The notes below the pieces were generated by a model. That model was given only the letters and a program-made list of their open reading frames with translations. It did no database searches and was not told where the DNA came from. The translations under genes and the position numbers were made by a program. A stretch of 52,226 nt of DNA from Methyloversatilis sp. (lineage in GTDB: Bacteria > Pseudomonadota > Gammaproteobacteria > Burkholderiales > Rhodocyclaceae): positions 1 through 52,226 of the forward strand of contig JAGNYW010000019.1 in NCBI GenBank assembly GCA_017984755.1. Reading direction: 5' to 3'. Below, piece after piece: positions 44,898 through 52,226 of the stretch (its first letter is position 1; every line of letters starts with the position of its first letter).

Positions 44898-46262
44898 CTA
44901 CAGCAAGGTCTTCAGCACCAGCCCGACCACCGCGCACGCGGCAATCACGTGTATGACGTTGCGCCGGTAGCCGAACAGCGCGACCGCAGCACCCAGAGCG
45001 ATGAGCGCGGACGGCCAGTCGAACGGCCCGGCGAATCCGGCCGGCCACAGCACGTGATAGCCGAAGAACAGGGCCAGATTGAGCACCACACCCACCACTG
45101 CCGCGGTGATGGCGGTCAGCGGCGCCGTGAACTTGAGGTCGCCGTGCGTCGTTTCGACCAGCGGACCGCCGGCCAGGATGAACATGAAGGAGGGCAGGAA
45201 GGTGAACCAGGTGACCAGCGTTGCCGCCGCCGCGCCGGCCAGAAACAGACCGTCGGGACCGAACACTGCACGCATTTCATCACTGAGGTAGCCGCCGACG
45301 AAACCGACGAAGGCGACCACCATGATCAGCGGACCGGGCGTGGTTTCACCCAGCGCGAGGCCGTCGATCATCTGGGTCGGCGTGAGCCAGCCGTAGTGCC
45401 CGACCGCGCCCTGATAGACATACGGCAGCACCGCGTAGGCACCGCCGAAGGTGAGCAGCGCCGCCTTGGTGAAGAACCACGCCATCTGCGTCAGCGTGTG
45501 ATCCCAGCCCCACACCGCCATCAATACGCCCATCGGCATCAGCCACAGCAGCGCGCCGACCGCCAGCACGCGAGCGAGTCGCGCCCAGCGGAAGCGGGTG
45601 TGTTCCGGTGCCGGCGTATCGTCGTCGATCAGCGCAGCACCGTATGACTTGGCGGCGCCACCGTGGCCGCCTCCGACGCGAAATATTTCGGGTGACAGCC
45701 GTCCGCCGACGAAGCCGGTCAAAGCCGCAGCCAGGACGATCAGCGGAAACGGAATGTTCAGCGCGAAGATGGCGACGAAGGACGCACCGGCGATCGCCCA
45801 CAGCACATTGTTCTTCAGTGCGCGCGAGCCGATGCGATGGGCCGCCTGCAGCACGATGGCGGTCACGGCCGGCTTGATGCCGTAGAACAGTCCGGCCACC
45901 AGCGGCACATCGCCGAACGCGATGTACATCCATGACAGTGCGATCAGGATGAACAGCGACGGCAGCACGAACAGTGCGCCGGCCACGACGCCGCCCCAAG
46001 TGCGGTGCATGAGCCAGCCGATGTAGGTCGCCAGCTGCTGCGCCTCGGGGCCGGGCAGCACCATGCAGTAGTTCAGCGCATGCAGGAAACGCCGCTCGGA
46101 AATCCAGCGCCGGTTCTCGACCAGCTCCTGATGCATGATCGAAATCTGTCCCGCCGGTCCGCCGAAGCTGATGAAGCCCAGCTTGAGCCAGAACACGAAT
46201 GCTTCGCGGAAACTGATCGGCGGCGGAGGGGCTTGTCTGTCGGTCACTTCGTCTGGGGCCAT
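44898..46262 (-). CDS. chrA: Chromate ion transporter ChrA (bidomain)
   Basis: A 454-residue transporter with duplicated halves: GFISFGGPAGQISIMHQELVE and NYCMVLPGPEAQQLATYIGW in the first, LLTFGGAYAVLPYVYQGAV and GLALGETTPGPLIMVV in the second. Chromate efflux, exchanged for sulfate by family. It converges with the CNNM gene. ATG 46262 is chosen by fit to the family length. Confidence 0.93.
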   Translation of the reverse strand: MAPDEVTDRQAPPPPISFREAFVFWLKLGFISFGGPAGQISIMHQELVENRRWISERRFLHALNYCMVLPGPEAQQLATYIGWLMHRTWGGVVAGALFVLPSLFILIALSWMYIAFGDVPLVAGLFYGIKPAVTAIVLQAAHRIGSRALKNNVLWAIAGASFVAIFALNIPFPLIVLAAALTGFVGGRLSPEIFRVGGGHGGAAKSYGAALIDDDTPAPEHTRFRWARLARVLAVGALLWLMPMGVLMAVWGWDHTLTQMAWFFTKAALLTFGGAYAVLPYVYQGAVGHYGWLTPTQMIDGLALGETTPGPLIMVVAFVGFVGGYLSDEMRAVFGPDGLFLAGAAAATLVTWFTFLPSFMFILAGGPLVETTHGDLKFTAPLTAITAAVVGVVLNLALFFGYHVLWPAGFAGPFDWPSALIALGAAVALFGYRRNVIHVIAACAVVGLVLKTLL

Positions 46263-46437
46263 GCGGCAGCGGATCCTCTTTGGGCGCTGACGGTGTGCCG
46301 GCGCGTGATCGGCATTCAAGGGTACCGCGGCTTCATGACGAAGCGGCGGCTCGTGCGCGACGGTAGCGCAGGTTCCCCCGCAGCATCCATTGCAGCGGCA
46401 CGCCCCGCGACCTGCCGGCGGATGCCGACCCCCTTCT

Positions 46438-46515
46438 CTGAGACAGCTGTGCCCGCCGGGTATTGAGACGACTGTCTCAGGCGAGGTGGAGACCGGCTCG
46501 TCCCGGGGGTGTCTC
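46438..46515. promoter_or_regulatory. Array of GAGAC/GTCTC half-sites, candidate enhancer for the quinoprotein operon
   Basis: CTGAGACAG (46438-46446) and CTGTCTCAG (46472-46480) are perfect inverted repeats 25 bases apart. Inside and behind them are GAGAC at 46465-46469 and 46489-46493, and GTCTC at 46474-46478 and 46511-46515, so five half-sites fall in 78 bases. They end about 83 bases upstream of the sigma-54 promoter, the place of an enhancer-binding activator. Confidence 0.75.
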
Positions 46516-46597
46516 CGCGCTCCACCGCGATGGCCTTCCGTCATGCGGATCAAGGCTTTCCGCGCCTTGCGCGCGTAACTGTCCGGTGTCGACGGTT

Positions 46598-46613
46598 CAT
46601 GGCATGGATGGTG
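46598..46613 (+). promoter_or_regulatory. Sigma-54 promoter of the quinoprotein dehydrogenase operon
   Basis: TGGCATG-GATG-GTGCT matches the -24/-12 consensus TGGCAyG-N4-TTGCT with one mismatch in each half; GG (46599-46600) and GC (46611-46612) are exactly 10 bases apart. The predicted start, about 12 bases on, leaves a leader of about 90 bases, which carries a short hairpin (46647-46665). Confidence 0.72.
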
Positions 46614-46646
46614 CTGAAGTCATCCTGCCCATCGTCGCAAACGGGG

Positions 46647-46716: not shown

Positions 46717-48465
46717 ATGAAAGAGCAGAGCGGCTTCAAGCTGCGTCCGGTGGCAGGCAGTGTCATTGCGCTGATGTTGCTGATGCCCGGTGTGGTCAGT
46801 GCCGAAGATCCGGAACCCCCGCTCGGGGTGAATGTGCTGGAAGCCACCTTCAAGTGGCGGCCGAACTACGTCAGCGACGACATGCTCATCCATGCCGACA
46901 AGGACGCCAACAACTGGCTGCACTATGGCAAGGACTATCAGGGTTGGCGCTTCTCCCAGCTCGGCCAGGTGACGCGCGACAACGTGAAGAAGATGGTGCC
47001 CAAGTGGAACCTGTCCTTCGGTGTCAGCGACGCACAGGTGAGCCAGACCACGGTGGTCAATGGCCGCATCTACGTGACCGCCAGCCAGAACAAGGTGTTC
47101 TCGGTCGATGGCGCAACCGGCCGCATGATCTGGAAGTACGAGCGCTCGCTGCCCGGCGATCTCGGTCCGCGCCTCTGCTGCGAGGCGGTGAACCGCGGCG
47201 TCGCGGTGTACAAGGACATGGTCTACATGGCCACGCTGGACACCCACATCGTCGCGCTGAACAACACCACCGGCCGCGTCGTGTGGGAAAAGAAGATGGG
47301 TGACTACAAGACCGGCGAAATCTACACGTCGATGCCGCTGGTGGCCGACGGCAAGATCGTGGTCGGCAACTCGGGCAGCGACGTCGGCGGCAACGTCGGC
47401 AAGATCACCGCACTCGATCCGGACACCGGTGAAATCGTGTGGCAGACCACGACGCGTCCGACCAGCGCCAGCGACCCCAACGCGAAGACCTGGGCCAACG
47501 ACTCCTGGCGCACGGGTGGCGGTTCGGCGTGGCTGACCGGCAACTACGAAGCGAAGAGCAACACGATCTACTGGGGTGTCGGCAATCCTTCGCCCGACTT
47601 CGATCCGTCGGTCCGCAAGGGCGACAACCTGTACAGCAATTCGACGCTGGCCATGGACGCGAAGACCGGCAAGATCAAGTTCCACTTCCAGTACACGCCG
47701 AATGACGCGTGGGACTACGACGGCAACAACGAAACCATCCTGGTCAATGACGAAAAGGGCCGCAAGGTGTGGCTGCACGGTGACCGCAACGGCCACCTGT
47801 ATTCGATCGACCGGACCAACGGCAAGTGCAACTGGGTGGTGCCGATCGCCCGCGTCAACTGGGTGACCGGCTTCGGCGAGAACTGCCGTCCGATCGTCAA
47901 TCCCGACAAGGTGCCGGGCTACGACAAGATCGCCACGGACATCGCGCCGATTCTCGACGGCGGCAAGGAGTGGCACCCGGCGGCGTACAGCCCGCAGACC
48001 AAGCTGCTCTACGTGCCGTACATCGACAGCTCGATGGACATCCAGGCCAAGAAGATGGAATGGAAGAGCGGCGAGTGGTATCTCGGCTCCAAGGTGCTGA
48101 AGGCCAACCCCTACACCGGCGGCATCAAGGCGTTCAACGCCACGACCGGCGAACAGGTGTGGTCGCGTCCGCAGAGCACGCCGGCGACCAGCGGTCTGCT
48201 GGCCACCGCAGGCGGTCTGGTGTTCTCGGGTGATGCCGAAGGCTTCTTCTCGGCCATGCGCGACGACACCGGTGAAACCCTGTGGCGCTTCAATGTCGGC
48301 ACCGGCATCCACGGCAACCCGACCACCTTCACGGTCGACGGCAAGCAGTACGTGGCCATCGTGTATGGCCCGGGTGGCGGCAGCCTGTGGCCGCTGGTCT
48401 ACGGCGAGCTGTTCAAGCAGCAGAACCGTGGCGGCGGCATGATGATCTTCGGTCTGTCCGACTGA
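46717..48465 (+). CDS. PQQ-dependent alcohol/methanol dehydrogenase, probably lanthanide-type
   Basis: A 582-residue quinoprotein with signal peptide 1-29. It has the eight-bladed propeller Trp-docking pattern, the vicinal disulfide Cys154-Cys155, and the catalytic Asp333 in NDAWDYDGNNE; Asp335 two residues later is the extra ligand seen in lanthanide enzymes (XoxF, ExaF, PedH), where calcium enzymes have Ala or Ser. The middle region (GDNLYSNS, GSDVGGNVGK) resembles ethanol-type enzymes (ExaF/PedH, Mdh2), so XoxF is not certain. AAGGAGGAG precedes ATG 46717. It is under the sigma-54 promoter and starts the operon. Confidence 0.93.
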   Translation: MKEQSGFKLRPVAGSVIALMLLMPGVVSAEDPEPPLGVNVLEATFKWRPNYVSDDMLIHADKDANNWLHYGKDYQGWRFSQLGQVTRDNVKKMVPKWNLSFGVSDAQVSQTTVVNGRIYVTASQNKVFSVDGATGRMIWKYERSLPGDLGPRLCCEAVNRGVAVYKDMVYMATLDTHIVALNNTTGRVVWEKKMGDYKTGEIYTSMPLVADGKIVVGNSGSDVGGNVGKITALDPDTGEIVWQTTTRPTSASDPNAKTWANDSWRTGGGSAWLTGNYEAKSNTIYWGVGNPSPDFDPSVRKGDNLYSNSTLAMDAKTGKIKFHFQYTPNDAWDYDGNNETILVNDEKGRKVWLHGDRNGHLYSIDRTNGKCNWVVPIARVNWVTGFGENCRPIVNPDKVPGYDKIATDIAPILDGGKEWHPAAYSPQTKLLYVPYIDSSMDIQAKKMEWKSGEWYLGSKVLKANPYTGGIKAFNATTGEQVWSRPQSTPATSGLLATAGGLVFSGDAEGFFSAMRDDTGETLWRFNVGTGIHGNPTTFTVDGKQYVAIVYGPGGGSLWPLVYGELFKQQNRGGGMMIFGLSD

Positions 48466-48518: not shown

Positions 48519-49289
48519 ATGACGATACGCACCTGTTTCAGCACCGCATTCGGCCTGCTCGCCCTCGCGGCGTGGCCGGTCTTCGCGGCCTCTCCGGCTG
48601 ACGCGCCCCTCAAGGTCTGTGTCGCCGAACACAACGCGCCCTTTTCTTCGCTGGACGGCTCGCCGAAGGGTGTCGACGTGGACGTCGCCCAGGCCATCGC
48701 CGATCGTCTCGGGCGGAGTCTTCAGTTCCACTGGCTCACCGTGCCGGTGCGCGGCGGGCTCGGCCGCGCCATGAGTCAGTCGATCGAGACCGGCACCTGC
48801 GATCTGTTCGCCGGCCTGCCTATGGCGGATGAAAGCGACGACGACCTCGCAAGGCGCGGGCTCGTGGCGTCGACGCCTTATCTGTCGGCCGGCTACGCGC
48901 TGGTCACGCAGACGTCGAGCCGCATCAAGTCGATCGAGCAGGCCCGCGCCGTGAAGATCGGCGCAGTGTCCGCCACGCCGGCCGATCTCTATCTGCTCAA
49001 GGGTGCCTTCAACCGCGCGCCCTATGCCGACAGCAAGGCGCTGCTCGGTGCGCTCGCGCAGGGTGAGATCGCTGCCGCGCTGGTGTGGTCGGCCAGCTTG
49101 GCCGTGGCATCGAAACCACCCGGCATCGTCGTGCGCGGAACGGTCGCGGAGTCCTGGATGCAGACGCGTTTTGCGATGGCCAGCCGGCGTACCGACAGTG
49201 TGCTCCGTGCTGCCGTCGACGACGTCATCAGGACACTGAAGGAAGACGGCTCGCTGCCTGCAATCGCACAGCGAAACGGCTTTCCGTGA
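48519..49289 (+). CDS. XoxJ-like periplasmic solute-binding protein
   Basis: A 256-residue protein: signal peptide (about 1-23), then a bacterial extracellular solute-binding family 3 fold (LKVCVAEHNAPFSS, GVDVDVAQAIADRLG, LFAGLPMADESDDD). MxaJ/XoxJ proteins of this fold help assemble quinoprotein dehydrogenases; being between the dehydrogenase and cytochrome genes makes that the best reading. ATG 48519 is weakly supported by a ribosome site. Confidence 0.85.
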   Translation: MTIRTCFSTAFGLLALAAWPVFAASPADAPLKVCVAEHNAPFSSLDGSPKGVDVDVAQAIADRLGRSLQFHWLTVPVRGGLGRAMSQSIETGTCDLFAGLPMADESDDDLARRGLVASTPYLSAGYALVTQTSSRIKSIEQARAVKIGAVSATPADLYLLKGAFNRAPYADSKALLGALAQGEIAAALVWSASLAVASKPPGIVVRGTVAESWMQTRFAMASRRTDSVLRAAVDDVIRTLKEDGSLPAIAQRNGFP

Positions 49290-49344: not shown

Positions 49345-49755
49345 ATGTTCCGATTCACATTGATGAGCGTGCTGCTGGCGGCAAGCGTCGGCAGCGCACA
49401 GGCATTCGGACCCGGCGAAGCGGCCGGCAATCCGGTTGCCGGCGACCCCACTGCCGCAGGCAAGGGCGAGGAACTGTTCGGGCGCAACTGCCAGCAGTGC
49501 CACAACTCGCGGGGCAAGGGCGGCAAGGCGCCGCAGCTCGTGAAGGGCGCCTGGGGTCCCGGCGGGGCGAACAGCGATGCCTACATGTTCGATGTCATTT
49601 CGAACGGCCGCACCGGTACCCAGATGGGTGGCTTCGGGCTTTCGCTGAAGCAGGAAGAGATCTGGCAGGTCATTGCGTTTCTGCGGCAGGAAGCGCTGCG
49701 CGTGAAGGCTGCCGAAAAGAACCCGACCGACGAAGACGAAATTCCCTACTACTGA
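49345..49755 (+). CDS. Periplasmic monohaem cytochrome c
   Basis: A 136-residue exported cytochrome. Signal peptide 1-20 ending AQA; haem motif CQQCH at 49-53; axial Met probably Met94 in GTQMGGFG; the end is acidic (DEDEIPYY). It is the likely electron acceptor of the dehydrogenase, like XoxG/PedF. Good ribosome site GGAG upstream of the ATG. Confidence 0.92.
   Translation: MFRFTLMSVLLAASVGSAQAFGPGEAAGNPVAGDPTAAGKGEELFGRNCQQCHNSRGKGGKAPQLVKGAWGPGGANSDAYMFDVISNGRTGTQMGGFGLSLKQEEIWQVIAFLRQEALRVKAAEKNPTDEDEIPYY

Positions 49756-51639: not shown

Positions 51640-52226
<587 letters not shown>

What the first reader, a model, noticed from the sequence alone, without database searches (positions are those of the whole stretch)
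46438..46613. Sigma-54 promoter plus five GAGAC half-sites ahead of a PQQ alcohol dehydrogenase
A good -24/-12 element (46598-46613) sits about 120 bases behind a 25-base spaced perfect CTGAGACAG/CTGTCTCAG pair and three further GAGAC/GTCTC half-sites. This is the classical enhancer arrangement, but the half-site is not one I can assign to a known activator. It suggests an unknown Fis-type activator that senses the alcohol or a lanthanide signal.
Basis: partly seen in the sequence, partly recalled or inferred. Interest (0 to 1): 0.85.

Follow-up and report, generated by a model that had tools for sequence, protein, structure and literature searches.

The report
AcoR/sigma-54 promoter of quinoprotein alcohol dehydrogenase
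The DNA in front of this periplasmic alcohol dehydrogenase gene carries the same switch that stands before acetoin-breakdown genes, so the enzyme probably belongs to the acetoin/2,3-butanediol pathway and its supposedly unknown activator is most likely the known acetoin sensor AcoR.

Summary
Inside the five GAGAC half-sites lies a perfect 16-bp operator, TGAGAC-N4-GTCTCA (46464-46479), with a weaker copy 25 bp upstream and a -24/-12 element at 46600-46615. All 11 of 13 genomes of this genus that carry the enzyme keep these elements. The activator need not be unknown. The only other perfect copy in this assembly lies between an AcoR-type sigma-54 activator gene and acoXABC-lipA. Among 83 AcoR-family loci from elsewhere (a capped list), exact TGAGAC-N4/5-GTCTCA occurs only in loci that hold acetoin genes (7 of 10, against 0 of 73): Zoogloea, Paraburkholderia, Mycetohabitans, Pseudomonas. 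Two Pseudomonas loci carry a second copy beside a 2,3-butanediol dehydrogenase gene. I conclude that AcoR, probably sensing acetoin, drives this quinoprotein with sigma-54. The enzyme is PedH-like, with the aspartate associated with lanthanide use, and may oxidise 2,3-butanediol. Binding, inducer, substrate and metal are inferred. A lanthanide-sensing activator is not supported.

The parts
46439..46454 (+). Upstream AcoR operator (imperfect), TGAGACAGCTGTGCCC
   Evidence: 10 of 16 columns invariant in 11 orthologous promoters.
46464..46479 (+). Main AcoR operator, perfect palindrome TGAGAC-N4-GTCTCA
   Evidence: 10 of 16 columns invariant in 11 orthologous promoters.
46488..46516 (+). Two further half-sites, GGAGAC (46488-46493) and GTCTCC (46511-46516); possible accessory half-operators
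   Evidence: Not conserved in place: L008-L011 have a GTCTC 16-18 bp after the main operator, L002 a GAGAC about 25 bp after it, L003-L007 none within 80 bp.
46600..46615 (+). Sigma-54 -24/-12 element TGGCATGGATGGTGCT
   Evidence: kept as TGGCAYGRATRVTGCW in 11 of 11 promoters.
46717..48465 (+). PQQ-dependent alcohol dehydrogenase, PedH-like; start at ATG 46717 behind AAGGAGGAG preferred over ATG 46687
   Evidence: TIGR03075 551 bits over cut-off 480; best solved relative 6zcv; start from alignment with orthologues.
48519..49289 (+). MoxJ-like periplasmic binding protein, same operon (inferred)
   Evidence: TIGR03871 below its cut-off, PF00497; matches follow the enzyme gene in 11 of 11 orthologous loci.
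49345..49755 (+). c-type cytochrome, likely electron acceptor (inferred)
   Evidence: PF13442 and PF00034; matches follow in 11 of 11 orthologous loci.

Best explanation
The region is the sigma-54 promoter and enhancer of a periplasmic quinoprotein alcohol dehydrogenase operon that belongs to the AcoR (acetoin) regulon. Dimers of the AcoR-type activator encoded elsewhere in the genome (contig C5, beside acoXABC-lipA) bind the two TGAGAC operators at 46439 and 46464. With acetoin as the likely ligand they oligomerise, loop to RNA polymerase with sigma-54 at 46600-46615 and open the promoter by ATP hydrolysis. The PedH-like enzyme, passing electrons to the cytochrome c encoded downstream, would oxidise 2,3-butanediol (about even odds) or a related short alcohol or aldehyde of the same pathway, yielding acetoin that AcoABC splits. 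Shown here: the elements, their conservation, and the tie of the operator to acoR-aco loci. Inferred: binding, ligand, looping, substrate and metal. The confidence given is for AcoR/sigma-54 control, not for the substrate.
For: Two perfect operators in the assembly: here and between acoR and acoX, where a sigma-54 element follows. AcoC passes its curated model (492 against 307 bits). In the genus, 12 of 13 genomes have the AcoR orthologue and each of the 12 has a perfect operator 120-132 bp from the start of the AcoR match; 11 of 13 have the dehydrogenase and each of the 11 has the operator before it at no more than one mismatch; G002 lacks both genes. Among 83 AcoR-family loci from elsewhere, exact TGAGAC-N4/5-GTCTCA occurs 9 times, all in 7 of the 10 loci that hold acoA and acoC, none in the other 73 (Fisher p 2.9e-8; N4 alone 4 of 10 against 0 of 73, p 1.1e-4). 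Pseudomonas loci L092 and L095 carry a second copy between a divergent open frame and a gene over the cut-off of TIGR02415 (2,3-butanediol dehydrogenase/acetoin reductase). A second quinoprotein operon next to acoR has weaker operators and a sigma-54 element in 7 of 7 loci examined; in an Azoarcus MAG its homologue has a one-mismatch operator plus TGGCAGGCAACTTGCG. P. putida PedE/PedH oxidise (2S,3S)-2,3-butanediol to acetoin (PMC8427195, passages).
Against: No binding or expression data. The genus genomes are related, and the two Paraburkholderia and three Pseudomonas loci are not independent. The N5 spacer was noticed in three of the seven loci before the count, so the smaller p-value is not for a pre-set pattern. 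Three of 10 aco loci lack the exact operator: L094 (1-2 mismatches), L101 Pantoea and L191 Caballeronia. G008 has AcoR and aco but not the dehydrogenase. Paralogues of the enzyme at 74% in G005 and G003 have no operator within one mismatch; each has three or four scattered half-sites and a TGGCAC-type element. More distant homologues (L012-L014, 54-56%) show no such operators. Six of the 29 genus sites with up to one mismatch lie elsewhere, three of them at one conserved locus without a visible tie to acetoin; the reversed pattern gave 10. Operator forms with two mismatches, on which the second quinoprotein operon partly rests, are not enriched in the genome. A second AcoR-family gene (C46, 40% identical) sits next to another quinoprotein gene, so another activator is not strictly excluded.
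Confidence: 0.86

Rival explanations
1. Another AcoR-family activator, such as the C46 protein beside a different quinoprotein gene, or a further sigma-54 activator of this genome, recognises the TGAGAC operator here.
For: Fifteen of 21 Sigma54_activat matches in the genome score over 200 bits; the C46 activator is AcoR-like (40% identical) and lies next to a PQQ dehydrogenase gene.
Against: The 12.7-kb C46 stretch has no operator with up to one mismatch. A C46-like gene is kept in G002, whose single one-mismatch site lies elsewhere, in a stretch without a match to the acetoin or quinoprotein queries. The C5 AcoR helix SRATFYRK resembles those of the AcoR proteins whose aco loci carry the operator (SRATFYRK, SRATLYRR); C46 reads SRTTLYRK. 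The helix alone is not decisive: L093 has SRATLYRK and no operator was seen.
Confidence: 0.07
2. The dehydrogenase is AcoR-controlled (this shares the best explanation's regulation) but its role is to oxidise acetaldehyde or ethanol arising from acetoin cleavage, not to make acetoin from 2,3-butanediol.
For: Acetoin is cleaved to acetyl-CoA and acetaldehyde, and PedE/PedH act on many linear and aromatic alcohols (PMC8427195, passages).
Against: In two Pseudomonas loci the second AcoR operator lies beside a 2,3-butanediol dehydrogenase gene, which favours a diol-to-acetoin role; not decisive.
Confidence: 0.35
3. A lanthanide- or alcohol-sensing unknown Fis-type activator controls the gene.
For: The enzyme carries the Asp associated with lanthanide use in 11 of 11 orthologues.
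Against: The exact operator tracks acetoin genes across genera. Lanthanide genes as such were not searched.
Confidence: 0.05
4. The half-sites and the -24/-12 match are chance or belong to the divergent chromate transporter gene.
For: The -24/-12 match alone is not better than chance.
Against: 31 of 48 columns of the three elements are invariant in 11 sequences against 23 of 215 other ungapped columns. The transporter gene was not found in the 1.5 kb of upstream DNA held for the other 10 loci.
Confidence: 0.02

Closest known systems
AcoR-sigma-54 control of aco operons (Cupriavidus necator; Bacillus subtilis)
   Same: AcoR-type activator with Sigma54_activat and Fis HTH domains beside acoXABC; palindromic enhancer; -24/-12 element. 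C. necator AcoR responds to acetoin (PMC7057948, passages).
   Different: Here the enhancer also stands before a quinoprotein operon on another contig. The Bacillus operator is described as a palindromic region of around 30 bp (PMC10018347, passages); its letters, and those of the C. necator operator, were not seen.
PedE/PedH quinoproteins of Pseudomonas putida
   Same: Closest solved relatives of the enzyme are 6zcv and 6zcw, then 1flg (the names PedH and ExaA for these entries are recalled). PedE/PedH oxidise (2S,3S)-2,3-butanediol (PMC8427195, passages).
   Different: A two-component system, PedS2/PedR2, governs the rare-earth switch of the ped enzymes (PMC6115532, listing). The words AcoR and acetoin do not occur in the main text of PMC12997753 on ped regulation (term search).
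BmoR of Thauera butanivorans, alcohol-responsive sigma-54 activator
   Same: Sigma-54-dependent activator for short-chain alcohols (C2-C8 n-alkanols) and a catabolic operon (PMC8784404, passages).
   Different: Controls a butane monooxygenase; its operator and sequence were not compared.

Membership tests
Sigma-54-dependent promoter | -24 GG and -12 GC elements with fixed spacing | tested here: met
   TGGCATGGATGGTGCT at 46600-46615; kept in 11 of 11 promoters.
Sigma-54-dependent promoter | rpoN in the genome | tested here: met
   PF04552 at C79, 221.8 bits.
Sigma-54-dependent promoter | Transcription lost without rpoN | not testable with these tools
   Needs a mutant.
AcoR regulon member | Operator shared with the acoR-aco intergenic region | tested here: met
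AcoR regulon member | acoR present in genomes that keep the promoter | tested here: met
   11 of 11 genomes with the enzyme have the AcoR orthologue.
AcoR regulon member | AcoR binds the site and acetoin induces the gene | not testable with these tools
   Needs gel shift and reporter.
AcoR (activator on C5) | Sigma54_activat with GAFTGA, Fis HTH, gene next to acoXABC | tested here: met
AcoR (activator on C5) | Acetoin-sensing N-terminal domain | tested here: inconclusive
   Pfam reported no domain before residue 350; ligand binding cannot be tested here.
Lanthanide-dependent PQQ alcohol dehydrogenase | Asp two residues after the catalytic Asp (WDxD) | tested here: met
   WDYDG in 11 of 11; 6zcv WDFDG, 1flg WDFSG. 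That this residue marks lanthanide use is recalled.
Lanthanide-dependent PQQ alcohol dehydrogenase | Activity requires a lanthanide | not testable with these tools
   Needs purified enzyme.

The most novel reading that the evidence does not exclude
A lanthanide-type periplasmic quinoprotein is the entry enzyme of 2,3-butanediol/acetoin catabolism and is wired into the AcoR/sigma-54 regulon. The product acetoin, not the alcohol or the metal, would be the inducer, giving a feed-forward circuit that couples rare-earth enzymology to a classical acetoin switch.
Probability: 0.3. Interest if true: 0.6.

Novelty: new member of a known kind. Interest (0 to 1): 0.45.

Why it matters
It gives a half-site (TGAGAC, spacer 4 in the Betaproteobacteria seen, 5 in the Pseudomonas seen) that could predict AcoR targets across two classes. 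It also suggests a pathway for one of many quinoproteins whose substrate cannot be read from sequence. It turns a puzzle (unknown activator) into a test that a single acoR deletion can settle.

Tried and rejected
Rejected: a lanthanide- or alcohol-sensing unknown activator. Considered: the one-mismatch sites of G001, G004 and G010 as further regulon members; they lie between a putative lipoprotein gene and a divergent gene, with no visible tie to acetoin. Three other one-mismatch sites (two in G007, one in G002) were fetched, but beyond a blast against the acetoin and quinoprotein queries without a match they were not examined. Widening the pattern to TGMGAC with one mismatch gave 18 places against 33 for the control; only the one at the C5 porin operon was followed. 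Paralogous promoters in G003 and G005 gave an ambiguous picture.

Literature: no report of AcoR control of a PQQ dehydrogenase, or of this operator, was seen in what was listed by eight searches (open-access library only; some searches listed only 20 of 437, 20 of 114, 10 of 12 and 15 of 28 papers, and one search matched mostly unrelated words). Passages were read from seven papers; none was read whole. Krueger and Steinbuechel 1992 on acoR was seen only as a reference, so an operator may be described there. The genus name was not given by any search; Methyloversatilis is a recalled guess.

Full report
What is there. The five GAGAC half-sites and the -24/-12 element are present. Two of the halves form a perfect 16-bp palindrome, TGAGACGACTGTCTCA at 46464-46479; an imperfect unit, TGAGACAGCTGTGCCC, lies 25 bp upstream. 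The sigma-54 element is at 46600-46615. Five GAGAC within 76 bp was not reached in 2000 random placements. The enzyme gene most likely starts at ATG 46717, where orthologues begin behind a GGAG ribosome site.

Conservation. Of 13 genomes of the genus (the window's own included), 11 have an orthologue of the enzyme at 89% identity or more; G002 and G008 do not. All 11 promoters keep both operators and the sigma-54 element, and the main operator has at most one mismatch in 11 of 11 (6 perfect). In the alignment of the 11, 31 of 48 columns of the three elements are invariant, against 23 of 215 other ungapped columns. These genomes are related, so the counts are not independent. Matches to the MoxJ-like protein and the cytochrome c follow the enzyme gene in 11 of 11 loci; the chromate transporter gene was not found in the 1.5 kb held upstream of the other 10. 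Paralogues of the enzyme at 74% in G005 and G003 have no operator within one mismatch, only scattered half-sites and a TGGCAC-type element.

Which activator. The assembly (about 94% complete) has one other perfect operator, on contig C5. It stands between a divergent 697-aa sigma-54 activator gene and acoX-acoA-acoB-acoC-lipA, and TGGCACGACAGATGCA follows. AcoC passes its curated model NF011457. The activator has Sigma54_activat and a Fis-type HTH. The AcoR orthologue (79-88% in the relatives) is present in 12 of 13 genomes, absent from G002 (best match 50%), and each of the 12 has a perfect operator 120-132 bp from the start of the AcoR match; the aco genes themselves were checked at 7 of the 12, where 7 of 7 also have a sigma-54 element before acoX. 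Of 29 genus sites with up to one mismatch, 23 are at these two promoters and 6 elsewhere; the reversed pattern gave 10.

Outside the genus. Ten of these 83 hold acoA and acoC by my bit-score limits. Exact TGAGAC-N4/5-GTCTCA occurs nine times, all in 7 of the 10, and in none of the other 73 (p 2.9e-8; N4 alone 4 of 10, p 1.1e-4). The N5 form was noticed in three of the loci before that count, and 12 of the 83 loci are shorter than 10 kb. N4 is seen in Zoogloea oleivorans, Paraburkholderia phosphatilytica, P. mimosarum and Mycetohabitans rhizoxinica; N5 in three Pseudomonas. Over spacers 2 to 8, two control palindromes gave 0 and 3 hits; the same halves in inverted order gave 2, both in aco loci. 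The three aco loci without the exact form are an Azoarcus MAG (1-2 mismatches), Pantoea coffeiphila and a Caballeronia. In two Pseudomonas loci a second copy lies between a divergent open frame and a gene over the cut-off for 2,3-butanediol dehydrogenase/acetoin reductase (361 and 362 against 304 bits); my loose scan found no well-spaced sigma-54 element before that gene.

A second quinoprotein. Next to acoR lies a porin-quinoprotein-cytochrome c operon with weaker operators (one or two mismatches to a widened pattern, such as CGAGACAGCTGTCGCA) and TGGCATGAATGGTGCG-type elements in 7 of 7 loci examined. Such loose operators are not enriched in the genome as a whole, so their weight rests on place and recurrence. 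In the Azoarcus MAG the homologous quinoprotein gene has TGAGACGAACGTCGCA, CGAGACGTCCGTCTCG and TGGCAGGCAACTTGCG ahead of it.

Mechanism and function. The most likely mechanism is AcoR binding to the two operators and ATP-driven activation of sigma-54 polymerase in response to acetoin; C. necator AcoR responds to acetoin (PMC7057948, passages). The enzyme resembles 6zcv/6zcw (PedH, name recalled) and has Asp at the lanthanide-associated place in 11 of 11. In P. putida PedE and PedH convert (2S,3S)-2,3-butanediol to acetoin (PMC8427195, passages). I therefore infer oxidation of 2,3-butanediol or a related compound; oxidation of acetaldehyde or ethanol from acetoin cleavage remains possible.

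Limits. Nothing here measures binding, induction, substrate or metal. The library holds open-access papers only, and the eight searches do not prove that AcoR control of a PQQ dehydrogenase is unreported.

Noticed in passing
L071:1737-1862: Second AcoR-like promoter (CGAGACAGCTGTCGCA, TAGGACACCTGTCGCA, TGGCATGAATGGTGCG) ahead of a porin-quinoprotein-cytochrome c operon beside acoR.
   Followed up: yes
L177:7547-9634 (G000 contig C46): A further AcoR-family sigma-54 activator (40% identical) next to another PQQ dehydrogenase gene; a match of 39-40% identity is listed in each of the 13 genomes of the genus. Its operator was not worked out.
   Followed up: partly
G001:C1:2191644-2193542, G004:C49:45701-47599, G010:C1:870034-871797 and like places: Another AcoR-like activator (50-52% identical) in six genomes of the genus, in five of them within about 1.5 kb of a PQQ dehydrogenase gene; not found at that identity in the window's genome.
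   Followed up: no
L168:5191, L169:5440, L179:7574: One-mismatch operators between a putative lipoprotein gene and a divergent gene in three genomes, with no visible link to acetoin.
   Followed up: partly
L092:5870 and 8848; L095:5791 and 8679; L135:5814: Pseudomonas aco loci use the same half-sites with a 5-base spacer instead of 4, with a similar recognition helix.
   Followed up: partly
L193 and L194 (G005 and G003, paralogues at 74%): Promoters with three or four scattered GAGAC half-sites and a TGGCAC-type element but no full operator.
   Followed up: partly
window 44898-46553 (-): Chromate efflux transporter gene (TIGR00937, 219.6 bits over 171.7); the listed open frame runs over the operators, but the family match starts only at residue 123, so the gene proper probably begins below them.
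   Followed up: no
window 51640-52206 (-): C-terminal part of thiC cut by the contig end.
   Followed up: no
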